A DNA stretch of 47,918 nucleotides from an uncultured Microcaldota archaeon. GTDB taxonomy: Archaea > Micrarchaeota > Micrarchaeia > Micrarchaeales > Micrarchaeaceae. The stretch spans positions 1 through 47,918 of the forward strand of contig CAISDH010000006.1 of NCBI GenBank assembly GCA_903884115.1. Reading direction: 5' to 3'. Below are positions 11,481 to 43,515 of the stretch, one piece after another (the first letter of the stretch is position 1; each line of letters opens with the position of its first letter). The notes under the pieces were generated by a model, which saw nothing but the letters and a program-made list of their open reading frames with translations, did not search any database and was not told the origin of the DNA. The translations under genes were made by a program, and so were the position numbers.

Positions 11481-11587
11481 GCAGGGGTTGCGGAGTCTGG
11501 TCTGGCTCGCAAAGCCACGGAAAAACGCGCGGGACTTAAGATCCCGTGGCCTTAGCGCATTCGTGAGTTCAAATCTCACCCCCTGCA
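11481..11587 (+). tRNA. tRNA-Leu (UAA) with an insertion or intron in the D-loop region
   Basis: Acceptor strands GCAGGGG (11481-11487) and CCCCTGC (11580-11586) pair perfectly, with A11587 as discriminator. The anticodon stem-loop is CGGGA-CTTAAGA-TCCCG (11530-11546), anticodon UAA. The T arm is GTGAG-TTCAAAT-CTCAC. The gene is 107 nt, about 18-20 nt too long. The excess lies between GGTC (ends 11502) and AAAAACGC (11521 on), and holds the hairpin TGGCT-CGCAA-AGCCA (11503-11517). Removing about 16-18 nt restores a normal archaeal Leu D arm (GCG...CGC stem). This suggests a noncanonical intron at about position 20-21. The exact splice sites are ambiguous. A TATA-like CCTTAAAAG lies about 25-30 nt upstream. 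Confidence 0.88.
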
Positions 11588-11656
11588 CATCTTCTATTTT
11601 GCTGCAGTAATCTCTTTTCATGTCTCAAGGTGCCAGAATGCCCCTAAACGTATCAT

Positions 11657-11683
11657 CTTATAAATCAAAACACACAATATATT
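11657..11683 (+). promoter_or_regulatory. promoter of the first repeat-protein gene
   Basis: CTTATAAATC lies at about 11657-11666, with the TATA centred about 22-25 nt before the GTG start at 11684, as in leaderless archaeal transcripts. The stretch ATCAAAAC...ATTGT that follows is shared, with small changes, by the promoters at 14059-14087 and 15241-15269. Confidence 0.65.
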
Positions 11684-13978
11684 GTGCACTCCAAGCATAC
11701 GGAAGGCGCTAACTTTTCAGAAAACAAAGAGCGAGCCAGTCCGCTGGCAAATGAATCAAGGGTTCATCCTGCTGCAATCCTACGTAATGAAACTAATTCA
11801 GATCCGCAAATCGAGACTCAGGTAAGCGATGCAAGCGAAACTTTATCCAACAACATCTTGGAGAACACGAAGACATTCAAAGCGCACGGACTGCCCGTTA
11901 CCAAAGCATCAAAAAATGTCTTAATGTCAAACCCCTCCAATCTGAAGTCCAATATCGAGACGCTAGAAGCCCACAACATATCTATCACCCGAGCGATGTC
12001 TCTCTTAACATCAAGACCATCCACTCTTAAATCCAACATCGAGACACTTGAGAAGAAAGAACTGCCTATTCCAAAGTCAATAAATGTCTTAAGGACAACG
12101 CCCTCCAATCTAGAATCCAACATCAAAATACTCGAAGCCCACAACATATCTCTAACCCTGGCAATGTCTGCCTTAAAGTCAAGACCTGCTAATCTGGAAG
12201 CCAACATAGAGACCCTGGAGAAGAAAGGGCTGCCTCTCGACCAGTCAATTGAAGTCCTAAGGGCAAACCACTCAAATCTGGAATCCAATATTAATATCCT
12301 GGAAGCTCACGGGATGCCTTTCGACAAATCAATTTCAGTCCTAACGTCAAATCCATCCAATCTGGAAAAAAACATCATTATCCTGGAAGCACACAATCTG
12401 CCCATAACTCAGTCACTTACGCTCCTAATGTCTAGCACCTCTGATTTAATAGAAAACATCAAGATACTGGAAAAGAAAGGGCTGCCTCTTAACCAATCAA
12501 TGGAAGTTCTGAGCGCAAATCCGTCTAATCTAAAAAAGAACATAAGGACTCTGGAAAAGAAAGGCCTGCCTCTCAGCCAGTCAATGAAGATCCTAAGAGC
12601 AGATCCCTCCAATTTGAGGGATAACATCAAGACCTTAGAAAAGAAAGGCCTGCCTTTCGACCAATCAATGGAAGTTCTGCTGTCAAATCCTGCCGATCTG
12701 AAAAAAAACATCAGGACGATCGAAGCTAACGGCCGGCTCATGGGTCAGTCAATTACTGTCTTGATGTCCAGTCCGTCCAAGCTGGAAAAAAACATCAAGA
12801 CGCTGGAAACTTACAAACTGCCTCCGTCTGTCGAGATCAATCTTAGGCTTCAACCCGAAGAATTCAAAAATAAAATTCTAGACTTACTTAAACAGAATGC
12901 GGTTCTATCCGAAGATGCAAAATCAAATTATTCGGATAGAGAATTGAACGAAATACTGCAAAAGGTTGAGGAAGGTCACACTCCGAATAAAAAAGGAGGT
13001 ACTATCGAACAAGCAGAATCCCCTATACCTCCTACCGTGCCAGCAATCTTAACTTCAGATCATGCAGTTGCGAAAGAGGACACTGTGGTGTTGAAAGATG
13101 GCAACGTGTTCCCGGTCAAGTCGTCAAAAGACATCAAACTGCAAAACTCAACATTTCTGGAAGAAAAGTCCAAGGCGCTGAAAGACCACAAAACGGCACA
13201 TTCAAGACACATCAAGGCATACTCTCTAGCCGTCCAGCACAAAGAATCCAAATATGAACCTCCAAGCGTTCGCAAACAGAGTGTGGCGGTTTATTATTTC
13301 CTAAATGAAAGTTCCAAAAAGAACTTCGAGTATTTGATTGATAGAATCCTCAACTCAGACGAGAAAAAAATATTCAGCGAAATAGGCGAACTGCTAGGTA
13401 ACGGTGCAAAACTGTCAAAAGAATATATCAAGCAGATAGTCAACAAACACACGGAATACGCTATTGCAGATTACAGATTAAACAAAATACTGAAAGAGCT
13501 TAGAGGTATTTTGCAGTCGCCAATACACGTCTTAAGGTCTGACAAGGCTGCTTCTGAAGAAAATATCAACATAATGGATGCGAGTATCGCTGAACCACCA
13601 GCATCTATTCAAGAGTCTATCCCAAGCACTTTACCTGAAGAATTAATAGAAAAGCCTCAGGATGTGTCCAAACTAATCAGACGAACTCCGGCAACGTACT
13701 CACGAAAGCGATACACCTATTTTATTTCTGATATGGCTTGCTTTGAACGTCGGATCGAAGAGCTTAATGCCCATGAGCAAAAAGCATTTAGAAGAATAGG
13801 CGAAGAGTTGAAAGAGAAGAAGGAAATAAGCAAGAAAGAAATCGAAAAAATTTTCGAAGAAGAAACCAGGCCAGATTATCCAAAAAAGATATACGGCCCC
13901 GGATTTAACTCCTGCCTTAGAACTAAGTTAACTAGAATACTAAATACCTATTTCAACGAGGCATTGAAGAAGAAGTGA
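11684..13978 (+). CDS. mTERF-like 28-residue tandem repeat protein (large paralogue)
   Basis: A 764-residue protein with no signal peptide or membrane segment. Residues about 54-393 hold 12 tandem repeats, 11 of them close to 28 residues, with consensus LxxNIxxLExxGLPxxxSMxVLxxNPSN. The spacing and the conserved NP near the end recall mTERF repeats, which form helical solenoids, so a superhelix is expected. Residues about 394-440, 520-610 and 680-760 carry a second module with an EKKxFxxIGExL core that also occurs in the downstream paralogue. GTG at 11684 is chosen because M-HSK...FSENKE aligns with MASK...PSENKE of the paralogue at 14088, and because of the TATA distance. The function is unknown; nucleic acid or protein binding is a guess from the fold. 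Confidence 0.8.
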   Translation: MHSKHTEGANFSENKERASPLANESRVHPAAILRNETNSDPQIETQVSDASETLSNNILENTKTFKAHGLPVTKASKNVLMSNPSNLKSNIETLEAHNISITRAMSLLTSRPSTLKSNIETLEKKELPIPKSINVLRTTPSNLESNIKILEAHNISLTLAMSALKSRPANLEANIETLEKKGLPLDQSIEVLRANHSNLESNINILEAHGMPFDKSISVLTSNPSNLEKNIIILEAHNLPITQSLTLLMSSTSDLIENIKILEKKGLPLNQSMEVLSANPSNLKKNIRTLEKKGLPLSQSMKILRADPSNLRDNIKTLEKKGLPFDQSMEVLLSNPADLKKNIRTIEANGRLMGQSITVLMSSPSKLEKNIKTLETYKLPPSVEINLRLQPEEFKNKILDLLKQNAVLSEDAKSNYSDRELNEILQKVEEGHTPNKKGGTIEQAESPIPPTVPAILTSDHAVAKEDTVVLKDGNVFPVKSSKDIKLQNSTFLEEKSKALKDHKTAHSRHIKAYSLAVQHKESKYEPPSVRKQSVAVYYFLNESSKKNFEYLIDRILNSDEKKIFSEIGELLGNGAKLSKEYIKQIVNKHTEYAIADYRLNKILKELRGILQSPIHVLRSDKAASEENINIMDASIAEPPASIQESIPSTLPEELIEKPQDVSKLIRRTPATYSRKRYTYFISDMACFERRIEELNAHEQKAFRRIGEELKEKKEISKKEIEKIFEEETRPDYPKKIYGPGFNSCLRTKLTRILNTYFNEALKKK
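11942..12862 (+). repeat. coding tandem repeat, 84-nt unit, about 11 copies
   Basis: Eleven units of 84 nt (28 codons) run without interruption from residue 87 to 393 of the large repeat protein; the last is one codon shorter. A looser unit lies before them. Protein identity between units is high at L, NI, LE, GLP, S, VL and P positions, while the DNA is diverged, so the array is old and kept by selection rather than freshly amplified. Two unit flavours (LEKKGLP and LEAHNIS/LP) alternate in the first half. Confidence 0.85.
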
Positions 13979-14058
13979 GGGCATACCGAAGAGATAAAGC
14001 AACATGCCTTATCTGGCTGCAGTCTTCTAGTTCGTCGGGCGTCGATGTGATAACGTAT

Positions 14059-14087
14059 TTTTTATATATCAAAACCACATTGTAAGC
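14059..14087 (+). promoter_or_regulatory. promoter of the second repeat-protein gene
   Basis: TTTTATATATC at about 14060-14070 places a TATA box 20-27 nt before the ATG at 14088, so the transcript is probably leaderless. The following AAAACCACATTGTAAGC is nearly the same as before the third locus (AAAACCACAGTGTACGC). Confidence 0.7.
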
Positions 14088-15161
14088 ATGGCTTCAAAGG
14101 AAATCAAGAAAGGCACACCATCGGAAAACAAAGAGTCTGAGCACATAGTAAGCGAATTCAAGGCTACTGATGGCAAAGTAGCTACAAACTCTATCGCCTT
14201 CCTGCCGGATGGTGCACCTGTAACGCTGCGCAAGGATGATGTGTCAAAAGCGTCTCTCGAAATGTCTGAAAGCTCAAACGACTTATCATATGCATGTATC
14301 TTGGCAAACATTGAGACTTCGAAAGAAAACCATCTGTCACTCCCTCATTCGATCGCAGTATTGGCTTCTCTGCCTGAAGACTTCGAAACGAAGTTTCTTG
14401 GTGTAAAAAAAGCAGGGTATTTGATTATAAACGAAGAAAGCTTCAACGCAGTACTGGCGACAACTAAAATCTTGTCCGTGGAGCGGGACGCATTCTGCGA
14501 AATGGCCGAAACGCTAAAAAGCGAGGGAATGGACAGAAATGGAATACTGAAAACCTACAAAAAACACAACGCTCGCTATTCAGTTGCAAGATTAAACAAA
14601 GTACTGCGTCTCTTTGAGAATGCCGGTGCGCTGACTAAAAACGAAGTGATCATAAACAGAGTTCATCAGGACTCTGCTGATTTTTCACAGGCTGATGTTT
14701 TATATGACCATCTCTCAGAGAACATCAAAACGTTGCAGAGACTCAATTTGCCCATCATATACTCAATTTCAACCTTGATGCTTTCGCCTGACGATTTCAA
14801 GGATAAGATTCAGGGAGTTTTTGAAGTGAAGTTATCTGTATACTCTATTCTGGATAAAAGACGCTTTGACCTCCAGCTTGTTGGTCTGCACGACAATGAG
14901 AAAGAAGCGTTAATAGAAATAGGTAAAACACTGTATAATGACGGTAAAAACGATGTTGAGTTGGATAGGGATGAGATTCGGGATATCTTCAAAAATTATC
15001 CAAGGCCGTGTTACTCGCCCCGCAGCCCCGAGTTAGAAGTAGCCAATCAGAAAAAAAGGCTACGCCTAATACTGGGGCGTTTTGAGGAATCCGGAAGTCT
15101 TAAGAGCGAAGACAAGATTATTAAAAAAGCAAAGTATCCCATACCTGGTATTTATGACTGA
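14088..15161 (+). CDS. mTERF-like repeat protein (small paralogue)
   Basis: A 357-residue paralogue of the preceding gene. The N-terminus (MASKEIKKGTPSENKE) aligns with that of the large protein. It keeps degenerate repeat units (around HLSLPHSIAVLASLPEDF) and one clear unit, LSENIKTLQRLNLPIIYSIS, at about residue 212. Each is followed by the second module: ERDAFCEMAETLKSEG...RLNKVLRLFENAG and NEKEALIEIGKTLYND...KKRLRLILGRFEESG. The modules look like small helical, possibly winged-helix, domains. No catalytic motif is seen. The protein seems cytoplasmic. The lower GC content compared with the neighbouring lipid reductase gene suggests a different history. Confidence 0.78.
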   Translation: MASKEIKKGTPSENKESEHIVSEFKATDGKVATNSIAFLPDGAPVTLRKDDVSKASLEMSESSNDLSYACILANIETSKENHLSLPHSIAVLASLPEDFETKFLGVKKAGYLIINEESFNAVLATTKILSVERDAFCEMAETLKSEGMDRNGILKTYKKHNARYSVARLNKVLRLFENAGALTKNEVIINRVHQDSADFSQADVLYDHLSENIKTLQRLNLPIIYSISTLMLSPDDFKDKIQGVFEVKLSVYSILDKRRFDLQLVGLHDNEKEALIEIGKTLYNDGKNDVELDRDEIRDIFKNYPRPCYSPRSPELEVANQKKRLRLILGRFEESGSLKSEDKIIKKAKYPIPGIYD

Positions 15162-15240
15162 AACCTGCCGTTGAGTTCTTCTTGCGCATATCCTTATTTT
15201 GCCACAGTTCGCTAGTTCTTCAAATATCGATGAGACCGGT

Positions 15241-15269
15241 CTTTTATATGCTAAAACCACAGTGTACGC
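15241..15269 (+). promoter_or_regulatory. promoter of the third, degenerate repeat-protein locus
   Basis: CTTTTATATGCTAAAACC lies about 20-28 nt before ATG 15270 and matches the promoter of the gene at 14088 in sequence and spacing. The promoter is thus better kept than the gene behind it. Confidence 0.6.
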
Positions 15270-15474
15270 ATGAATGCCAAGCCGGCCCTGCAACTCAAAC
15301 ACCAACGACGAATTCGAATTAGAAGCCAAGCATTCATGGGTAAGGGTAAGCGCAATACTGAATAGTCTTGTGAAAGCTCACGTCTTTGAGCAAGAAGAAA
15401 GTTATCACGTCTTGAAGCGAGAAGAAAGTCCCAAGAAAAAGACAGAGCAGCCAATACCGGATCTTCGCAACTAA
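15270..15474 (+). pseudogene. truncated third member of the repeat-protein family
   Basis: The ATG at 15270 is at the same distance from the shared promoter as in the paralogue, but its frame stops after about 31 codons. A second frame, open from an ATG at 15274 to 15474 (66 residues), carries ELEAKHSWVRVSAIL near its middle and ends in EQPIPDLRN. This matches the last 50 residues of the 14088 protein (PELEVANQKKRLRLIL ... YPIPGIYD). The locus therefore looks like a paralogue that lost its centre and shifted frame. Expression of the 66-residue frame as a small protein cannot be excluded. Confidence 0.65.
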
Positions 15475-28317: not shown

Positions 28318-28390
28318 GTTATTTATTCCTTCATTTCCCTAGCAGCGTGAGTGCATGCAGGACATCAAGCGCGCCACACGCCCTTCCAAG
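28318..28390 (+). repeat. 73-nt promoter-leader repeat, copy 1
   Basis: This block spans the TATA-like TTATTTAT, the leader and the first 12 codons of the pilin-like gene at 28355. It is identical to 29923-29995 except for one base. A looser third copy precedes the gene at 31689. The repeats show recent duplication or gene conversion of a promoter plus signal-peptide cassette. Confidence 0.85.
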
Positions 28391-29812
28391 AAGTCTTATG
28401 GAAGGAATGCGCAGTCTGCGATGGAGTACTTGATTACATACGGCTGGGCGATACTGATAGTGGCCGTTGCGCTCGGCGTGCTGTGGTCCTTGGGCCTATT
28501 CTCCAATAAATCCGTAAACAACCTGTGCGTAGGTGCGGCAGGATACGTCTGCAGCAACCCTGTGCTAGTAAGCAACGGCGTTCTGTCCGTCTCTATTGAG
28601 CCGATAAGTGGCAGCGCATTGACTGTTACAGGCCTAGGCTGCTCCAATTCCTCTATGCAGCCTTCAACATTCACTTCAACGAGCACTACTCTTCCCTCTC
28701 TCCAGACCATAAGCCTCTCGTTCGTATGCACGCTCTCCTCCAACGCGATAGGCGCGCCATTATCCGGCACGCTGTGGGTGCAGTACAGCAGCGGGACACA
28801 GACAGGGTACACAGAGCTCAGCCAGTTCAGCACGCAAGTGGTGGCATACGGGCCTCTTGTTGTGACGGGTCCAGCATCGCATTACGTTCCTATAACAATC
28901 ACGAGTTCAGGCACAACAGCTTCCAACTTCCAGCAGATGCTTACGATAAACAGCAATACATACAACGCATACATCAACTCCGGCTGGACAAACGTAGAGT
29001 TCACGACAGGCGCGAAAGGTTCAGGAACTCCGCTGCAGGCGTGGGTCGAGAGCAACCCGAGCAACACCGCGACAAGCACAGTGGTGTGGGTGTTTTTCCC
29101 TTCCGGCCTCGCATCAGGCAGCACAACAATATACATGGACTTCATGCCCAGCAACGTGATGTCGTCTTCCGGGCCTACAGGCGAGGCCCCGCAGCTTACA
29201 GGCACTTATGGGCAGTATGACAACGGAGCTAGTGTATTCAGCTTCTATGATGACTTCTCTAGTGCATCATTGACTGCGAATGGGAAATGGGTAGTTGAGG
29301 GAAGTCCTGCATATACTACGGGAACTGGACTGAGAGAAACAGGTTCGATCAGTAATAGTAACTTTGTTGCATCGTCTGGAACGTGGGATTCTACAGCGTA
29401 CATCTCGGAAATGTATGGCTACCAAACGGATACGAATGGCAATGATAGGTTCTTTTCAGTTGTCACAGGGCAAACTGGTTCTAATCAGGGCGTATATTTT
29501 GAAGGTAATTCAGGAACACTTCAGTCCTATGTTCTGTATGGAGGTAGTGGTGGTCAAGGTTCATTTGCAGGAACAACATTAGGAACTACTGTAAACGCAA
29601 TACTTTCTATTTATGCAGCACCAGGTGGAGGAACAACGTATGTGATGTATAACTATGTCCTTTCATCTACAGGTGCTCCACCAAGTCTAACTACTGCATA
29701 CTATCAGCTCGGTGGCGCACTTTCCGCAACAAACTTCTATCAGTGGGTGAGAAGAAGACCAATTCCGCCCAACAACGTGATGCCAACAGTGAGCTTTGGC
29801 ACGTTTAGTTGA
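28355..29812 (+). CDS. pilin-like surface protein with DUF2341 and lectin-like domain
   Basis: A 485-residue protein. The leader MQDIKRATRPSKKS...NAQSAMEYLITYGW is followed by a hydrophobic helix ending near residue 50, a class III/prepilin-like signal. Residues about 170-290 are a DUF2341 stretch (YVPITITSS...LQAWVESNPSNTATSTVVWV...STTIYMDFMPSNVM). The rest (FSFYDDFSSASL ... onwards) looks like a beta-sandwich of concanavalin/LamG type. Only few Cys occur. The protein should sit outside the cell, either in a filament or anchored. Closest relatives in the window are at 1-1417 and 31689. Confidence 0.88.
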   Translation: MQDIKRATRPSKKSYGRNAQSAMEYLITYGWAILIVAVALGVLWSLGLFSNKSVNNLCVGAAGYVCSNPVLVSNGVLSVSIEPISGSALTVTGLGCSNSSMQPSTFTSTSTTLPSLQTISLSFVCTLSSNAIGAPLSGTLWVQYSSGTQTGYTELSQFSTQVVAYGPLVVTGPASHYVPITITSSGTTASNFQQMLTINSNTYNAYINSGWTNVEFTTGAKGSGTPLQAWVESNPSNTATSTVVWVFFPSGLASGSTTIYMDFMPSNVMSSSGPTGEAPQLTGTYGQYDNGASVFSFYDDFSSASLTANGKWVVEGSPAYTTGTGLRETGSISNSNFVASSGTWDSTAYISEMYGYQTDTNGNDRFFSVVTGQTGSNQGVYFEGNSGTLQSYVLYGGSGGQGSFAGTTLGTTVNAILSIYAAPGGGTTYVMYNYVLSSTGAPPSLTTAYYQLGGALSATNFYQWVRRRPIPPNNVMPTVSFGTFS

Positions 29813-29868
29813 AACCAGTTTCAAAATTAAACCGAAATTGCGGTGCAGTATCAACCATTAAGTTGGTT

Positions 29869-29891
29869 AAATCAACGAAACGTGTTGATTT
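29869..29891 (+). terminator. hairpin after the pilin-like gene
   Basis: AAATCAAC and GTTGATTT pair perfectly around a 7-nt loop, 57 nt after the stop. They follow a weaker CAAC/GTTG hairpin just upstream. The hairpin may end the transcript or protect its 3' end; this is inferred from shape only. Confidence 0.35.
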
Positions 29892-29922
29892 TAAACAACT
29901 TCTCTATCGGCGCAATGATACT

Positions 29923-29995
29923 GTTATTTATTCCTTCATTTCCCTAGCATCGTGAGTGCATGCAGGACATCAAGCGCGCCACACGCCCTTCCAAG
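29923..29995 (+). repeat. 73-nt promoter-leader repeat, copy 2
   Basis: Same block as 28318-28390 with a single G to T change in the leader. It provides promoter, leader and first 12 codons for the glycine-rich gene at 29960. Confidence 0.85.
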
Positions 29996-31552
29996 CGTTC
30001 CGATAAAGGGAATGCGCAGTCCGCGATGGAATACCTCATGACATACGGCTGGACGATTCTGATAGTGTCTGTAGTTATTGCGATGCTATTTCTATTGGGT
30101 ATATTTCGTACAAATAGTGCTTCCTCTGCCTTCTGCACTCCTATTGCCCCTTACACTTGCAGCAGTCCGACTCTGCTCTCCAATGGTGTTCTGATAACCC
30201 AGATCGAAGAGCTCGGAAGCACGATAACCGTGAACGGACTAGGCTGCTCCAGCACCAACACCGCGCCTTCCTCATTCATGCCTACAAACGCGCAATTATT
30301 CTCAGGTGTTTCTAGCAGCCTCTCCTTCTCCTGCAATATACCGTCCACTGCGATAGGCACACCTTTCTCTGGCACGCTATGGATCCAATACATCAGCGGA
30401 GCGCAGACAGGCGTATCGCAGGTAAGCACTGTAGATGCAAAAGTGGTCCAATTAGTCCCTCCACCCGCATACTCATTCTCTGCGTCTGCGGTGTCTAATG
30501 GTATGGTGTCTTGCACTCCTTCGTGCTCTGGAACATTCTCGGCAGGGACGTCAATTTCCATTACAGAAACTCCATACGGCAGCAACGTATTCAATGGCTG
30601 GTCCGGGACCTCTTGTTCTGGCAGTTCAAACCCGTGCGCTTTCTCAATGCCTGCAGGTGCGGATACTGAGTCTGCAAGCTTCTACTTGCCAGTTGCATGC
30701 GCGCTCACAATCACAAGCAATGCGATATACACATCGCCCATCACGGCAACCATCAGCTATACAATGTATGGCGGTGGCGGTGCCGGAGGTAGTAACCAGT
30801 GCTGCGGCCAAGGCTCAAGCGGAAATACTGGTTCTGGCGGTGCGTCCAGCAGCGGAAGTTTCTCAATATCTGCAGGCAACACGATTACAATTTATGCGGG
30901 TGGCGGCGGTGCAGGTGGTGGCGGCCAGGTTAGTAGCAATTGCGGTGGGGATTGCTCCACTGGTGGTGGAGGTGGCTCTGGTTATTATGGTGGCGGTGGC
31001 GGTGCCGGTGGTGAAAGCTACGACAACAGCAAGCCTGCCTCGGGCGGCGGTGGTGGTGGAAGCTCTGCAGTTCTTGTAAGTGGAGTTGTGGTTGCTAGTG
31101 CTGCAGGTGGAGGCGGCGGTGCCGGTGGCGGCGGCAAGATTGGCGGTGGCGGCGGAGGCACAGGCAGCGGTGGCGGCTCTGGTGCCACGTGTACTAATTG
31201 CAACGGCGTTACTGGCCAGACCGGAAGCAGCTATACAGGAGGTGTTTCTTGGCCGGATACCGGTAGCGGCAACGGCGGAAGCTACGCTACTGCTGGTGGT
31301 GGTTATTCTGTATTATGTAGCGGCACAGGCGGAGGCGGCGGCGGATTCGGAGGTGGTGGAGGTGGTGGCGGTGGCGATTGCACCGTCGCAGGCGCAGGTG
31401 GCTCTAGCGGTGCATCAGGCACCACAGCTACTGGCTCTGGCGGTGCAGGCGGATCAACGGGATCTGCTGGTGGTGGTGGCACTGTCGGCAGCGGAGGTGC
31501 AGGAGGCAGCGTCCAGCTTTCATGGACCGGTCCTGGCACATGCATTCCATGA
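29960..31552 (+). CDS. pilin-like surface protein with InlB-type and glycine-rich domains
   Basis: A 530-residue protein with the same MQDIKRATRPSK...AQSAMEYLMTYGW leader and hydrophobic helix as its neighbours. After a shared Ser/Thr-rich part (to about residue 160) comes a segment like the divergent InlB B-repeat (VSCTPSCSGTFSAGTSISI...FNGWSG). From about residue 265 to the end it is dominated by runs of Gly with Ser, Ala and Tyr (GGGGGAGGGG types). There are about a dozen Cys, some in pairs. Such glycine-rich ends occur in adhesins and coat proteins. The strand-reversed frames here are proline-rich shadows, not genes. Confidence 0.87.
   Translation: MQDIKRATRPSKRSDKGNAQSAMEYLMTYGWTILIVSVVIAMLFLLGIFRTNSASSAFCTPIAPYTCSSPTLLSNGVLITQIEELGSTITVNGLGCSSTNTAPSSFMPTNAQLFSGVSSSLSFSCNIPSTAIGTPFSGTLWIQYISGAQTGVSQVSTVDAKVVQLVPPPAYSFSASAVSNGMVSCTPSCSGTFSAGTSISITETPYGSNVFNGWSGTSCSGSSNPCAFSMPAGADTESASFYLPVACALTITSNAIYTSPITATISYTMYGGGGAGGSNQCCGQGSSGNTGSGGASSSGSFSISAGNTITIYAGGGGAGGGGQVSSNCGGDCSTGGGGGSGYYGGGGGAGGESYDNSKPASGGGGGGSSAVLVSGVVVASAAGGGGGAGGGGKIGGGGGGTGSGGGSGATCTNCNGVTGQTGSSYTGGVSWPDTGSGNGGSYATAGGGYSVLCSGTGGGGGGFGGGGGGGGGDCTVAGAGGSSGASGTTATGSGGAGGSTGSAGGGGTVGSGGAGGSVQLSWTGPGTCIP
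30188..30310 (+). repeat. 123-nt block shared with 31920-32042
   Basis: This coding block of the glycine-rich gene recurs in the next gene at 31920-32042 with four differences. The flanking sequence is much less alike. The pattern fits gene conversion between neighbouring surface-protein genes. Confidence 0.8.
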
Positions 31553-31688
31553 CTCTGTTCTAATGCACTGCGTTTGCCGGTGAGAATCAGCTACACAGTG
31601 CAAACGTAAGGACGACTCCTATCTCTCCACAACTTTGTGGCATTGCCACCAGCTATTTATTACTTCGTCTCGATATTCTTACGAGTGC

Positions 31689-33200
31689 ATGCAGGACATC
31701 AAGCGCGCCGAACGCCCTTCCAAGAAGTCCAATAAAGGGAATGCGCAGTCCGCGATGGAATACCTCATGACGTACGGCTGGACTATTCTAGTCATTTCCA
31801 TCGTCATCTTAACGCTATCTTTATTAGGGATATTTCGCATTGGTGGTGCGTCATCATCTAATTTCTGCACACCTATTGCGCCTTTCACCTGCAGCAATCC
31901 AATTCTTAGCTCCAACGGAGTTCTGATAACCCAGATCGAAGAGCTCGGAAGCACGATAACCGTGAACGGACTAGGCTGCTCCGGCACCAACACCGCGCCT
32001 TCATCATTCATGCCTACAAACGCACAATTGTTCTCAGGTGTTCCTAGCAGTTTATCCTTCGCCTGCAACCTTCAGTCCACAACGATAGGCGCTCCTTTCA
32101 CAGGCACTCTATGGATCCAATACAGCAGTGGAATGCAGACAGGAGTCACAGAGATCGGCACTGTCAGCACGCCCGTGGTCATCCTGGGGACGTCTCCTCC
32201 GTCTGCGATAGCTTACGTTCCGATAACCCTCGCGAATTCGAATGGCGCGACAGGCTCAAACTTCCAGCAGATGCTTACGATAAACAGTCAGACGTACAAC
32301 ACATACATCAACTCCGGCTGGATGAACGTCGAGTTCACTACGGGCCCTAACGCTGCAGGTACTGTACTTCAGGCATGGGTAGAGAGCAACCCGAGCAACA
32401 CCGCGACAAGCACAGCGGTGTGGGTGCTTCTCCCTTCAGGTCTCGCATCAGGCAGCACAACAATATACATGGACTTCATGTCCACCAACGTGATGTCGTC
32501 ATCCGGGCCGACTGGAGAGGCCCCACAGTTATCAGGCACCTACGCACAGTACGATAACGGAGCCAGCGTGTTCGCCAATTACAATAACTTCATCTCTTCA
32601 AGTTCCATAAGTGGATGGACCGAAGGCGGCCCTGGATGCTGGAACGGTTGCATCGAGACTTACAGTGCGAGCAACGGACTTACACTTACTGAAGGACCTT
32701 CAGGATATGGAACCAATAATGAAGGAGTCGCATCAACTTACGCCCTTACCATACCTTTTGTTTATGAGGCATATGGAGAAGCCAAAAATCTTCTGGGCTT
32801 CAGCTCGATAGGCTGCGTAGACTTTGGCCTGGATTATGCCACCAACAGTCTAAGCCAGATTGTAGGCGGCCCTTGGTTCTGGTCGCCAACTGGAGTTCAA
32901 TACGCCTGCGGCGGCTCAACTTGGGAAGGCTTTGCAAACGGCGGCTATATGGCGATTTCGTCCTCTCCTAGTGGCAATTCAAACACCTTCTATGTGCTGG
33001 GCCAGACCGTAACAAGCACAAACGTTTATTGGTATGTTAACTACGGGCAGATAGGCAGTGTACTGTATAGTGCATCTTCTGGAAACTATGCCGGCTTCTG
33101 GGTGGATGGTGGCGACAACCAGTTCTACTACTGGATGCGCACTCGCGTCTATCCGCCAAGCAACGTGATGCCGAGCGCGACCTTTGGCGCGATTGCTTGA
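31689..33200 (+). CDS. pilin-like surface protein with DUF2341 domain
   Basis: A 503-residue protein from ATG 31689, chosen because MQDIKRAERPSKKS...AQSAMEYLMTYGW matches the starts of the two upstream genes; a frame-internal ATG further upstream (31635) lacks that support. The DUF2341 part (YVPITLANS...STTIYMDFMSTNVMSSSGPTGEAPQ) is followed by a beta-rich domain with a few Cys (GPGCWNGCIETY). It combines an N-terminal half close to the 29960 gene with a middle close to the 28355 gene, so it is a mosaic. A role as surface filament subunit or adhesin is inferred. Confidence 0.88.
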   Translation: MQDIKRAERPSKKSNKGNAQSAMEYLMTYGWTILVISIVILTLSLLGIFRIGGASSSNFCTPIAPFTCSNPILSSNGVLITQIEELGSTITVNGLGCSGTNTAPSSFMPTNAQLFSGVPSSLSFACNLQSTTIGAPFTGTLWIQYSSGMQTGVTEIGTVSTPVVILGTSPPSAIAYVPITLANSNGATGSNFQQMLTINSQTYNTYINSGWMNVEFTTGPNAAGTVLQAWVESNPSNTATSTAVWVLLPSGLASGSTTIYMDFMSTNVMSSSGPTGEAPQLSGTYAQYDNGASVFANYNNFISSSSISGWTEGGPGCWNGCIETYSASNGLTLTEGPSGYGTNNEGVASTYALTIPFVYEAYGEAKNLLGFSSIGCVDFGLDYATNSLSQIVGGPWFWSPTGVQYACGGSTWEGFANGGYMAISSSPSGNSNTFYVLGQTVTSTNVYWYVNYGQIGSVLYSASSGNYAGFWVDGGDNQFYYWMRTRVYPPSNVMPSATFGAIA

Positions 33201-40730: not shown

Positions 40731-41300
40731 TCAGTTCTTTCTTAATGCTCTTAACAGCTCTAGTGTTTTCAACAGCGCTCTTGTTTTAGGCAGGTCCTCT
40801 CTACCTGCGGTCTCGTTTGATGCATCGCTAAGTAACGCGTCAAACTGTTCAACAGTAATTCCAGTAATTGTGACTTCTCCGATTTCGGATGCGTCGTCCG
40901 CCTCAATTCTTGGCGTTGCTGCTTCATCAGCCTTAACTCCGACAACCAACGACACGGCAGTATTGCCATTCGGCAAGAAGACGAACATCCCTTTATTATT
41001 GCTAATACGGTGGATGCCTGCCTTTAGTGCCTTGTCAAGCTCTCCAGATTCATGTAGGCTTTTTACATCGAAATAGAACCCGCCATCTCTTACTTGATCA
41101 TTCAGTTCTTTTGAATCTAGATTCTGGTCTAGCTCTTTTACCTCTTGATCAGTCATGAATCTTAGGTGGTTTCGCCGCAGAAGTTCTATAGAATATTCGA
41201 GATTTGCAGCAGTCTTGATTATGAATACCGTTGTAGTGTTTACTTTTACTTTCTCAAACTGCGGTTCAGCCCTTAATTTAGTTCCATTAATTCCAGACAT
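40731..41300 (-). CDS. hypothetical protein in a repeat-flanked segment
   Basis: A 189-residue soluble protein that I do not recognise. It has no Cys and no membrane segment. A helical middle part (NLEYSIELLRRNHLRFMTDQEVKELDQNL) and a beta-like part (GMFVFLPNGNTAVSLVVGVK) precede an acidic linker and a C-terminal helix. Codon use is less GC-rich than in the housekeeping genes. Its promoter region shares an exact 23-nt block with that of the downstream methyltransferase. It lies between the two palindromic TTACTG repeats as well. Confidence 0.6.
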   Translation of the reverse strand: MSGINGTKLRAEPQFEKVKVNTTTVFIIKTAANLEYSIELLRRNHLRFMTDQEVKELDQNLDSKELNDQVRDGGFYFDVKSLHESGELDKALKAGIHRISNNKGMFVFLPNGNTAVSLVVGVKADEAATPRIEADDASEIGEVTITGITVEQFDALLSDASNETAGREDLPKTRALLKTLELLRALRKN

Positions 41301-41322
41301 TTTGACACATTGTTATTTCCAT

Positions 41323-41345
41323 TTATCCAGATACTTATGTGCTTG
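41323..41345. repeat. 23-nt direct repeat, copy 2
   Basis: Exact copy of 40541-40563, placed 23 nt before the ATG of the unknown gene at 40731-41300. The CATAAGTA element is about 32-39 nt from that ATG. Confidence 0.9.
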
Positions 41346-41761
41346 GTTACCTCGTAGTTTGTTTGCGGGAGTTTGCGGTTCTGCAAACTTGTAAGACGGG
41401 CGCAACCCCATCCAACCAATGAGCAATTTTAAGGGATTTGGACCCTGATTCTACGTAGTGTCACTTCTAGGAAGCCCTGAGAGGTCTCGGCGAATATCAT
41501 TTAAACCCTTAACAGATTTCTGCTGATTTTCATAGTTGAAACATAATATGATATGAGTGCTCCGACGTCAAGGGGTACAAAATGGGTTTATAAATAGGGG
41601 ATAAATTTTTGTCTTTTATCCCATCTCCCAAAAAGATAAAAGCCCTTATGTAAGTTCGGCGCTTTCCAGAGTGTTTCTGGACGTTTGCAGACGAGAAGGG
41701 AGAGGATAAGTTATCCTTAATAACTTGTGTTATACTCGGTTAAAAACCCTAGGAGAGACAA

Positions 41762-41780
41762 TTACTGACAGTAAAAGCCC
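41762..41780. repeat. palindromic repeat TTACTG-N-CAGTAA, copy 2
   Basis: TTACTGACAGTAA followed by AAGCCC, the partner of 40652-40671. The two copies enclose about 1.1 kb containing the unknown gene and most of the gene-free region. Confidence 0.75.
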
Positions 41781-41861
41781 GAAGCAGTAGTTATCTGATC
41801 CAAAAAGGTGCATAAACAATACATATTTAAATCATACCCCCATAAGGTATATTGTGATAAG

Positions 41862-42104
41862 ATGAATGTTGTCATAAGAAACAAGATGCTTCAAATTTTA
41901 GATATCATGGTTAAAGAAGGATATGCAAATACAAAGTCAGAAGCAATTCGGCTGGCAATACTCAATTTTGGAGAAAAATATATTGGCGAAGACGTCTTAG
42001 TAAGTGAAAAACTTGATGAGATCGACAACATGATAAAGGCAGGAAAGAGAAAAACGCTGAACGCTAAAGAGGCATTGGGCATCCACGCAAGATATCTTAA
42101 GTGA
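41862..42104 (+). CDS. ribbon-helix-helix antitoxin-like protein
   Basis: An 80-residue protein from ATG 41862. The N-terminal beta strand and helices (MNVVIRNKMLQILDIMVKEGYANTKSEAIRLAILNF) fit the ribbon-helix-helix (CopG/ParD-like) DNA-binding fold. The charged C-terminus would bind the toxin. Its stop overlaps the toxin start in GTGA. Antitoxins of this type repress their own operon. A frame extension up to 41808 has no support. Confidence 0.85.
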   Translation: MNVVIRNKMLQILDIMVKEGYANTKSEAIRLAILNFGEKYIGEDVLVSEKLDEIDNMIKAGKRKTLNAKEALGIHARYLK

Positions 42105-42370
42105 TAAACACGTACAAAGCCGAGTTTGATCAAGACTGGCCGAGATATTTCGATGTACTGGATAACAGCATAAAGGAGAGGATTGCAAAGAAAATAGGGA
42201 AGATTCTTGAATATCCCATTAAAAGACATTTGAAGAATATTTCTTTCTTTGTGGATGAAGTGGGACAGTATAGAATTATTTACAGAGTATTTGATGAAAC
42301 TAAGCAAGTACGTTTCTATTTTGTAGGCACACACAAGGAATATGAAAAGTGGTACAGACAGGGTTTCTGA
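42101..42370 (+). CDS. RelE/ParE-family toxin-like protein
   Basis: An 89-residue protein starting with GTG at 42101. The order helix-helix-beta sheet and the stretches LDNSIKERIAKKIGKILEYPIKRHLKN, YRIIYRVFDETKQVRFYFVGTHKEYEKWYRQ are those of RelE/YoeB-like mRNA interferases. The YRIIYRV and FVGTHKEYEKWY motifs bear the usual Arg, His and Tyr. The overlap with the antitoxin gene supports the pair. Activity as ribosome-dependent RNase is expected from the family, not shown. Confidence 0.87.
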   Translation: MINTYKAEFDQDWPRYFDVLDNSIKERIAKKIGKILEYPIKRHLKNISFFVDEVGQYRIIYRVFDETKQVRFYFVGTHKEYEKWYRQGF

Positions 42371-42435
42371 AGGAAGCAGCCCTTTTTATCCCTTACAAAT
42401 AAGCCTTAAACCCTGAGAGGGAATTGGATTCTTGA

Positions 42436-43515
42436 TCATCTGTCTCCGTTCTGGTACAACAAGTCTCTCCTTATGTTCATTGCAGTTGGCAGCAGTCCTG
42501 CGCCAGGCGCTTCCACAGCGTAGTATCTGTCTTTGTATATGTTGGATTTGATCACTATTTTGTTTGCGGTTCCTCTGAGTTGGCCCAGCGGGCTGTCCCT
42601 TGGCATGCTCTGCAGGCCTACTGATATCTCAGGGGCGTCTTCCCCCATTACAAACCTTGCAACATACTTAAATGTGGAATTTTTCTTCATTTCGTTGTCC
42701 ATCTTCAGTTTCATATCCTCGTCTATCTCCCTAACTCTCAGAAGAAGCCTGCTCGGGTCGCTCTCCGAGAGGTACTTTTCTGGGATGAAAGGGACGATCT
42801 TCACATCATCTATGCTGGCATTAACTCCTGCGGTTCTGACTAGTATCAGTATCTTGTTTGCAACATCAGTGCCACTCAAGTCTCTGGTCGGATCTGGCTC
42901 GGTATAGCCTTCTGTTATCGCTTTAGACAGTGCCACTGAGAATTTCCTTCCGGCCTCAAGTTCCGATGTTATGTAAGCCAGAGTGCCTGAGAAACTTCCG
43001 GTGATTTCGGTCGGGATCTCTCCAAGATCCCGCATGTCTCTTATGATGTCAACTGCTTCCGCCCCTGCCATTACAGAGCACCTATACCTGTATCTCTTGG
43101 GGTTTGCCGTCAGTGTTTGGAAAGTGCTGAAATCGCTCTGAACAAGCGGATTCTTGTTTGCAGTGACTATCTTATGGTGAGTCTCTTCTATGACCTTCCT
43201 GTGCAGCGCCAGCATGTCCTGTGACGGGGTGACATCTATCATTGTCACGCTGTCTTCGCTTGCTCTCAGCAGATCCACAAGACGTATGGGGTCTTTGTAC
43301 GCGATGCCTTCCGTGCTCCTGGATGCAAAATCCCTAACAAGTGTCTCTTTAAGACCATCAGGATCGTACAAAAACGAGGTGCTGGAAGCCACGCCAACTA
43401 TGCTTATCGGGTTCCTACGGTGCAGAGGGTCTGTATCCCCCTTGTCGTATATTTGTGATACTAGCGTTTTTCCGACCTTGCCGGTGGCGCCAATTATGAA
43501 AATAGACTCGGGCAT
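42436..43515 (-). CDS. hom: homoserine dehydrogenase
   Basis: A 359-residue NAD(P)-dependent homoserine dehydrogenase of the aspartate pathway to threonine and methionine. The nucleotide-binding start is IFIIGATGKVGKTLV. VTANKNPLVQ carries the conserved Lys. The catalytic signature is EGYTEPDPTRDLSGTDVANKILIL, with its Glu, Asp and Lys. A C-terminal ACT domain is missing, as is usual for the short archaeal form. No aspartate kinase gene is nearby. Confidence 0.93.
   Translation of the reverse strand: MPESIFIIGATGKVGKTLVSQIYDKGDTDPLHRRNPISIVGVASSTSFLYDPDGLKETLVRDFASRSTEGIAYKDPIRLVDLLRASEDSVTMIDVTPSQDMLALHRKVIEETHHKIVTANKNPLVQSDFSTFQTLTANPKRYRYRCSVMAGAEAVDIIRDMRDLGEIPTEITGSFSGTLAYITSELEAGRKFSVALSKAITEGYTEPDPTRDLSGTDVANKILILVRTAGVNASIDDVKIVPFIPEKYLSESDPSRLLLRVREIDEDMKLKMDNEMKKNSTFKYVARFVMGEDAPEISVGLQSMPRDSPLGQLRGTANKIVIKSNIYKDRYYAVEAPGAGLLPTAMNIRRDLLYQNGDR

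What the first reader, a model, noticed from the sequence alone, without database searches (positions are those of the whole stretch)
11641..15474. Cluster of mTERF-like 28-residue repeat proteins with shared leaderless promoters
Three adjacent loci, directly after tRNA-Leu, encode related proteins made of NIxxLExxGLPxxxSMxVLxxNPSN repeats plus a second helical module with an EKKxFxxIGExL core. mTERF repeats are known mainly from mitochondria and chloroplasts, where they bind nucleic acids. An archaeal solenoid of this build is unfamiliar to me. All loci share a TATA box at about -25 and the block AAAACCACAxTGTAxGC before the start, so they are probably expressed together. The unequal repeat number suggests unit gain and loss.
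Basis: partly seen in the sequence, partly recalled or inferred. Interest (0 to 1): 0.78.

Follow-up and report, generated by a model that had tools for sequence, protein, structure and literature searches.

The report
Archaeal mTERF-like helical repeat proteins
This small archaeon carries a gene pair for rod-like helical repeat proteins related to the mTERF family, which is reported as absent from prokaryotes; the repeats resemble DNA-wrapping proteins and are fused to a small domain that matches nothing known, so they are probably regulators that bind nucleic acid.

Summary
The repeat cluster is real. P0001 (11684-13978, 764 aa) has a strictly periodic 28-residue array of about 12 units plus two copies of an ~85-residue module. 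P0002 (14088-15161) has two repeats and two modules. The third locus is only a 66-aa ORF with the same promoter block and no demonstrable homology. The exact promoter block occurs twice in the genome (loci 2 and 3); locus 1 shares only the -25 TATA box and an adjacent 8-mer.

The mTERF reading holds. The array's profile matches archaeal mTERF proteins (hhalign probability 96-97%, E 6e-10). The same genome has a canonical mTERF (PF02536, E 4e-24), and 26 of 301 Micrarchaeota genomes pass the Pfam cut-off, although the literature calls mTERF absent from prokaryotes. The predicted fold is a two-helix-per-repeat solenoid whose best PDB matches are TAL-effector and mTERF structures. The fused module has no PDB match; in relatives it is joined to AbrB/MazE-type DNA-binding domains.

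The cluster is low-GC and lies in a variable spot behind tRNA-Leu, with true relatives only in one other genus. Most likely these are nucleic-acid-binding regulators, a divergent mTERF subfamily. Binding itself is inferred, not shown.

The parts
11481..11586 (+). tRNA-Leu(UAA) with an extra ~20-nt hairpin in the D-arm; left border of a variable spot
   Evidence: Read by eye; weak covariance-model match; same tRNA with the same extra hairpin before the orthologous spot in seven relatives
11659..11683 (+). Promoter-like stretch of locus 1: TATAAATCAAAAC at -25, directly before the GTG start (leaderless layout)
11684..13978 (+). P0001, 764 aa: 28-residue repeat solenoid plus two C-terminal modules
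11843..12862 (+). Solenoid array, residues 54-393, about 12 units of 28 residues, two short helices each
   Evidence: PF02536 25.9 bits summed; hhalign to archaeal mTERFs
13283..13519 (+). Module copy 1 in P0001 (Y-x-F/L..F..L..E..xF.EIG.. domain)
   Evidence: profile match E 9e-22
13706..13975 (+). Module copy 2 in P0001
   Evidence: profile match E 7e-37; AlphaFold2 model pLDDT 84, no PDB fold match
14063..14087 (+). Promoter block of locus 2: TATATATCAAAACCACATTGTAAGC, ending at the ATG
14088..15161 (+). P0002, 357 aa: [repeat + module] twice; N-terminus aligns with that of P0001 (SK...SENKE)
14406..14642 (+). Module copy 1 in P0002
14712..14813 (+). Isolated 28-residue-type repeat in P0002
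   Evidence: repeat-profile match E 3.5e-4
14829..15110 (+). Module copy 2 in P0002
15245..15269 (+). Promoter block of locus 3: TATATGCTAAAACCACAGTGTACGC, ending at an ATG
15270..15474 (+). Locus 3: ATG at 15270 opens a 31-codon frame; a 66-aa ORF starts at 15274 in another frame; probably a decayed remnant

Best explanation
P0001 and P0002 are divergent members of an archaeal branch of mTERF-like alpha-solenoid proteins. Shown: a strict 28-residue array, a sequence-profile relation to archaeal mTERF proteins, a predicted two-helix-per-repeat solenoid whose best structural matches are TAL effectors and mTERF1, and fusion to a recurring ~85-residue module. Inferred: the array wraps along nucleic acid, most likely double-stranded DNA, with its basic side, and the modules act as the oligomerisation or partner-docking end, so that the protein works as a lineage-specific transcription regulator or road-block. 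Repeat number sets the length of the contact. The short, homogeneous units make a one-residue-per-base code unlikely. The pair sits as a low-GC insertion in a variable spot between tRNA-Leu and the geranylgeranyl reductase gene, each gene with its own leaderless promoter.
For: Solenoid profile vs archaeal mTERFs: hhalign probability 96.6, E 6e-10 and 95.0, E 4e-8. The repeat self-profile scores 68.7 over 262 columns; reversed 9.4; in 400 within-repeat permutations the next best over long stretches was 47.6, plus one 15-column outlier at 71.2. PF02536 over P0001 25.9 bits summed (cut-off 23.1). Canonical mTERF in the same genome, E 3.7e-24, whose only PDB sequence matches are mTERF chains, best 6.5e-6. 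Fold: regular hairpins, pLDDT 76; all five PDB matches with E<0.001 are TAL-effector or TAL-derived DNA-binding proteins, mTERF1 on DNA at E 0.03, probability 1.00. Solenoid pI 9.4. The module in f11 relatives is joined to the same kind of solenoid or to AbrB/MazE domains (E 1.6e-11, 1.2e-13). Repeats evolve under constraint, pS 0.60 vs pN 0.32.
Against: hmmscan of whole P0001 does not list mTERF; its N-terminal half scores 20.4 bits, below the 23.1 cut-off, and L044/L045 show no PF02536 match. Direct profile comparison of the array with the genome's own canonical mTERF gives nothing. Net positive charge is modest (43 K/R vs 35 D/E) and E12 is invariant. The model rests on four sequences, and superhelix geometry from such models is uncertain. 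P0002 has only two isolated repeats and pI 6.1, so it cannot wrap DNA as a long solenoid. No binding data exist.
Confidence: 0.55

Rival explanations
1. Protein-protein scaffold: the solenoid is an mTERF-like or merely similar helical rod used to bind protein partners or to contact the host archaeon, with the modules as adaptors; no nucleic-acid binding.
For: Mixed charge with an invariant Glu per unit; alpha-solenoids commonly bind proteins; human MTERF4 binds a methyltransferase with one solenoid end (PMC4005652); lineage restriction and low GC fit a fast-evolving interaction gene.
Against: No signal peptide or membrane segment is apparent in the sequence (by eye); the best fold matches are DNA-wrapping proteins rather than TPR/HEAT; module partners in relatives are DNA-binding domains.
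Confidence: 0.22
2. RNA-binding mTERF-type factor acting on transcripts or rRNA (splicing, stability, ribosome assembly) rather than on DNA.
For: Several plant and animal mTERFs act on RNA or rRNA (PMC4005652); in G081 and two G282 contigs the module gene lies between rpoB and the uL3 ribosomal protein gene.
Against: Module fusions are to AbrB/MazE-type DNA-binding domains; the fold search returns dsDNA binders.
Confidence: 0.2
3. Convergence: a low-complexity amphipathic 28-residue repeat that only resembles mTERF because of regular L/N/P spacing; not homologous.
For: Composition-driven weak matches to coiled-coil families; repeats make E-values optimistic; one of 400 permutations reached the score, over 15 columns.
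Against: Permutations that keep composition and period otherwise stay far lower. Outside f11 the only genomes hit by the repeat-plus-cap profile at E<=0.001 are two that also carry mTERF (G133, G138).
Confidence: 0.12
4. Decaying foreign island: a past insertion at tRNA-Leu whose genes are no longer used.
For: GC3 0.45-0.46 against 0.66-0.75 for neighbours; insertion spot variable in relatives; locus 3 has a broken or frameshifted start.
Against: Two long intact ORFs, synonymous excess between repeats, conserved promoters; no viral or plasmid relatives.
Confidence: 0.08

Closest known systems
mTERF family (Pfam PF02536; MTERF1-4 of animals, about 30 in plants)
   Same: Tandem helical solenoid; L..LGL..........P..L-type unit; profile relation through archaeal mTERFs; predicted fold matches human mTERF1 bound to DNA
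   Different: 28-residue units with two helices instead of 33-residue units with three (PMC4705650); C-terminal module unknown in mTERFs; archaeal and not organellar; borderline Pfam score
Archaeal mTERF proteins found here (e.g. L096 in the same genome; L107, L104, L108, L113, L118, L121)
   Same: Unit NPxxixxNxxxLxxLGLxx.. aligns with NPSNLKKNIRTLEKKGLP..; hhalign E 6e-10
   Different: 31-36-residue units; strong PF02536 scores (E 7e-17 to 3e-39); no module
G094/G086/G282 solenoid-module proteins (family f11, genus g70, Micrarchaeota)
   Same: Same 28-residue repeat and same module; duplicated genes with near-identical promoters
   Different: Fewer repeats (about 1-5) and an N-terminal cap domain that P0001 lacks
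TAL effectors and TALE-likes (BATs, MOrTLs)
   Same: Best PDB fold matches: two short helices per unit, DNA-wrapping solenoid
   Different: 28- not 34-residue units; no PF03377 match; no evidence of a repeat-variable code; no secretion signals tested. None listed in archaea (PMC11514114)
AbrB/MazE swapped-hairpin regulators with the same C-terminal module (L047, L049)
   Same: Share the module
   Different: DNA-binding part is AbrB-like, not a solenoid

Membership tests
mTERF (PF02536) | Sequence match above the curated Pfam cut-off | tested here: inconclusive
   25.9 bits summed over two stretches in the genome search (cut-off 23.1); 20.4 bits for the N-terminal half, not listed for the whole protein by hmmscan
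mTERF (PF02536) | Units of about 30-33 residues with three short helices | tested here: not met
   28-residue units; two helices in the model; reference value from PMC4705650
mTERF (PF02536) | Helical-repeat solenoid similar to solved mTERF structures | tested here: met
   3n6s E 0.03, Foldseek probability 1.00, TM 0.39/0.43; weaker than the TAL matches
mTERF (PF02536) | Profile homology to undisputed family members | tested here: met
   hhalign vs archaeal PF02536 proteins 96.6%, E 6e-10; permutation control; no match to L096 alone
mTERF (PF02536) | Binds nucleic acid | not testable with these tools
   No experiment possible
TAL effector / TALE-like | Sequence match to the TAL repeat family PF03377 | tested here: not met
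   Not listed for P0001 at E up to 10
TAL effector / TALE-like | 33-35-residue units | tested here: not met
   28 residues
TAL effector / TALE-like | Two hypervariable positions in an otherwise constant unit | tested here: not met
   Many positions vary; the inter-unit loop is nearly constant (NPTN) in G094
TAL effector / TALE-like | Fold similarity | tested here: met
   Top PDB matches, E 1e-4 to 6e-3, TMq 0.48-0.61
Archaeal 28-residue solenoid-module family (defined here) | 28-residue repeat plus module in one protein | tested here: met
   P0001, P0002, L044, L045

The most novel reading that the evidence does not exclude
Micrarchaeota have an anciently diversified set of mTERF-type nucleic-acid-binding solenoids, from canonical 31-36-residue forms to this compact 28-residue form fused to a new fold, used as lineage-specific DNA-binding regulators. 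The organellar mTERF family would then have prokaryotic relatives, and the compact form would be a natural structural bridge between mTERF and TAL-type solenoids.
Probability: 0.35. Interest if true: 0.85.

Novelty: new variant of a known kind. Interest (0 to 1): 0.66.

Why it matters
Published work states that mTERF genes are apparently absent from fungi and prokaryotes (PMC3981765), and none of the 5.39 million held papers mentions mTERF together with Micrarchaeota. Finding Pfam-level mTERFs in 26 of 301 Micrarchaeota genomes, one of them in a single-contig genome, opens the question of where the organellar family came from and lets it be tested with a tree. The window's own proteins add a compact 28-residue unit whose model resembles both mTERF and TAL solenoids, and a small domain with no PDB match that is shared with AbrB-type regulators. 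If the array binds DNA it would be a new natural scaffold for modular nucleic-acid binding in archaea.

Tried and rejected
Close-homolog searches found nothing: the search for related loci in genome contigs with P0002 and viral contigs with P0001, tblastn in phages and plasmids, BLAST-type search of 60 near relatives. Profiles were needed.

Hits rejected as chance or unrelated: G101 (an SMC-like protein), G074 (PIN-like), G154 (ThiH/HydG-like) from the repeat profile; the coiled-coil Pfam hits CENP-F, SMC and the like, explained by composition; Plastid-ycf2 and tRNA-Sec Rfam matches at the tRNA; pAgo at E 0.003 for P0002; the three-mismatch promoter-like site on contig C36, whose neighbourhood shows no related gene.

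Mobile-element reading: considered because of low GC and the tRNA, but no integrase, viral or plasmid relative was seen. Direct-repeat attachment sites were not searched systematically.

Link between cluster and tRNA-Leu: human MTERF1 is known to bind in the mitochondrial tRNA-Leu(UUR) gene, and this cluster follows a tRNA-Leu(UAA). I treat that as coincidence, since the same spot in relatives holds unrelated small genes or nothing.

Module as winged helix: suspected by eye, but the model is strand plus four helices and matches no PDB entry. Viral fold library: nothing significant.

Full report
WHAT IS THERE. The window is contig C6 of a 1.02-Mb draft genome. The phylum is Micrarchaeota: a relative of the same class, G086, has a contig of the same length (16,237 bases) as a contig titled Candidatus Micrarchaeota archaeon, Lake Pavin. 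Two long genes follow tRNA-Leu. P0001 (11684-13978) has a leader, about 12 units of exactly 28 residues (54-393), and two copies of a second module. P0002 (14088-15161) has [repeat + module] twice. The first-stage unit is right: P-S-N-L-x-x-N-I-x-x-L-E-x-x-G-L-P-x-x-x-S-M/I-x-V-L-x-x-N, with L4, N7, I8 and E12 invariant. Alternating units are more alike (lag 56, identity 0.50) than neighbours (0.42), which points to growth by two-unit duplications. Nucleotide divergence between units is large but skewed to synonymous sites (mean pS 0.60, pN 0.32), so the protein repeat is maintained by selection.

THE THIRD LOCUS AND THE PROMOTERS. All three loci have a TATA-like box at exactly -25 from a start codon and a leaderless layout. 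The longer block is identical only at loci 2 and 3, expected 0.00 times in the window, and these are its only two exact sites in the genome. Locus 1 has TATAAATCAAAAC and then a different sequence. The ATG at 15270 that corresponds to the P0002 start opens a 31-codon frame; the 66-aa ORF starts four bases later in another frame and shows no significant similarity to P0001 or P0002. It is best read as a decayed remnant carrying the family promoter. A parallel exists in G094, where two solenoid-module genes (57% protein identity, 74% coding nucleotide identity) share nearly identical stretches just before the ATG.

SETTING. Genes on both sides are conserved across the family: PAC2-type protein, tRNA-Leu, then geranylgeranyl reductase and a short ORF, with a phosphoesterase and an M50 protease in most. 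The space between tRNA-Leu and the reductase gene is 103-172 nt in four relatives, 349 nt in one, and 850-1170 nt with unrelated small genes in three others. In this genome it is 3.96 kb at 42% GC. P0001 and P0002 have GC3 0.46 and 0.45 against 0.66-0.75 in neighbours. So the cluster was inserted at a variable spot. No phage, plasmid or viral relative was found.

RELATIVES. Simple sequence searches found none. Profiles found the same repeat and module in one other genus (g70, family f11). L044 (405 aa) has a cap domain, about five 28-residue units and one module; L045 (359 aa) has about three units; L046 has a cap and module with little repeat. All five g70 genomes have the module. Two of them fuse it to AbrB/MazE-type domains (E 1.6e-11 and 1.2e-13), one protein carries weak HTH signals beside it (E 0.12-0.34), and in G081 and two contigs of G282 a module gene lies between rpoB and the uL3 gene. 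A 13-sequence module profile over 301 genomes gives strong hits only in this genome and g70.

THE mTERF QUESTION. Pfam mTERF (PF02536) searched in the own genome gives two things. First, a canonical 291-aa mTERF on contig C11, E 3.7e-24 by hmmscan, whose only PDB sequence matches are mTERF chains, best 6.5e-6. It lies beside a deoxyhypusine-synthase-type gene and, further on, genes that read as an isopentenyl-diphosphate isomerase and a DRG-type GTPase, so contamination by a eukaryote is unlikely. Second, P0001 itself, 25.9 bits summed over its stretches against a cut-off of 23.1. Across the phylum, 26 of 301 genomes pass the cut-off and none of 14 control genomes does. One is G008, a single-contig genome with matches at both ends of the contig, as expected if the gene crosses the circular junction. 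Individual proteins score E 7e-17 to 3e-39. Family f7 proteins such as L113 have 31-residue units, NPETIQRNADFLKALGLTPEKIATNAQLLGR, which line up with the 28-residue unit over its first twenty positions; the difference is three residues in the second helix. hhalign of the P0001 array against three of these gives probability 96.6, E 6e-10, and the cap-plus-repeat profile 95.0, E 4e-8. To guard against composition and periodicity I permuted the 28 positions identically in all units. The real score is 68.7 over 262 columns and the reversed profile gives 9.4. Of 400 permutations, 200 peaked at 18.3; in the other 200 three exceeded 25: 71.2 over only 15 columns, 47.6 and 30.5. The link is therefore well supported but not beyond doubt, and the array does not match L096 alone.

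FOLD. AlphaFold2 on four sequences gives regular hairpins, helix A about residues 4-13 and helix B 18-27 of the unit, pLDDT 76, pTM 0.57. All five PDB matches with E below 0.001 are TAL-effector or TAL-derived DNA-binding proteins; next come designed left-handed alpha/alpha toroids, another TALE and human mTERF1 on DNA (E 0.03, probability 1.00). [quoted passage not shown] The 28-residue unit is thus mTERF-like in sequence and TAL-like in having two helices. The module model (13 sequences, pLDDT 84, pTM 0.71) is strand-helix-helix-helix-helix-strand with no PDB match better than E 4.4.

HOW IT PROBABLY WORKS. Shown: homology at profile level to archaeal mTERFs, solenoid architecture in the model, repeated module, own promoters, foreign composition. 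Inferred: nucleic-acid binding along the array, most likely dsDNA, because every significant structural neighbour and the AbrB partner domain bind DNA; and regulation as the output. A one-residue-per-base code is unlikely, since the loops are nearly constant in G094. Weak points: modest net charge (+8 over 340 residues), an invariant Glu in each unit, a model from few sequences, and P0002 with only two repeats.

VERDICT. Whether public annotation databases already list archaeal members of PF02536 could not be checked here; the literature search found no discussion of it.

Noticed in passing
window 11481-11586 +, and L067, L069, L073, L076, L083, L084, L086: tRNA-Leu(UAA) carries an extra hairpin (TGGC...GCCA stem, variable loop) in the D-arm, conserved across genera of the family and invisible to ARAGORN; either a non-canonical intron or a structured insertion.
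   Followed up: partly
G000:C11:12238-13062 - (L096:1342-2217 -): Canonical mTERF protein in this archaeal genome beside a deoxyhypusine-synthase-type gene.
   Followed up: yes
L107 (G092), L104 and L108 (G291, G023), L113, L118, L121 (family f7): Long archaeal mTERF arrays of different unit lengths (31-36 residues), some proteins over 600 aa.
   Followed up: partly
L145, L155, L158 (G216, G282): 542-672-aa proteins with another long helical repeat, hit by the cap-plus-repeat profile; not matched to PF02536.
   Followed up: no
L050, L062, L063, L142 (G081, G282): In genus g70 a module gene lies between rpoB and the uL3 ribosomal protein gene; the G282 C23 copy looks frameshifted, and a G216 C2 copy near uL3 has internal stops.
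   Followed up: partly
window 28355-33200 +: Three large adjacent proteins with class III signal-peptide-like N-termini (MQDIKRA..AQSAMEYL), probably pilin- or adhesin-like, one with a long Gly-rich tract.
   Followed up: no
window 41000-43000: Second low-GC stretch (0.39-0.44) in the window.
   Followed up: no
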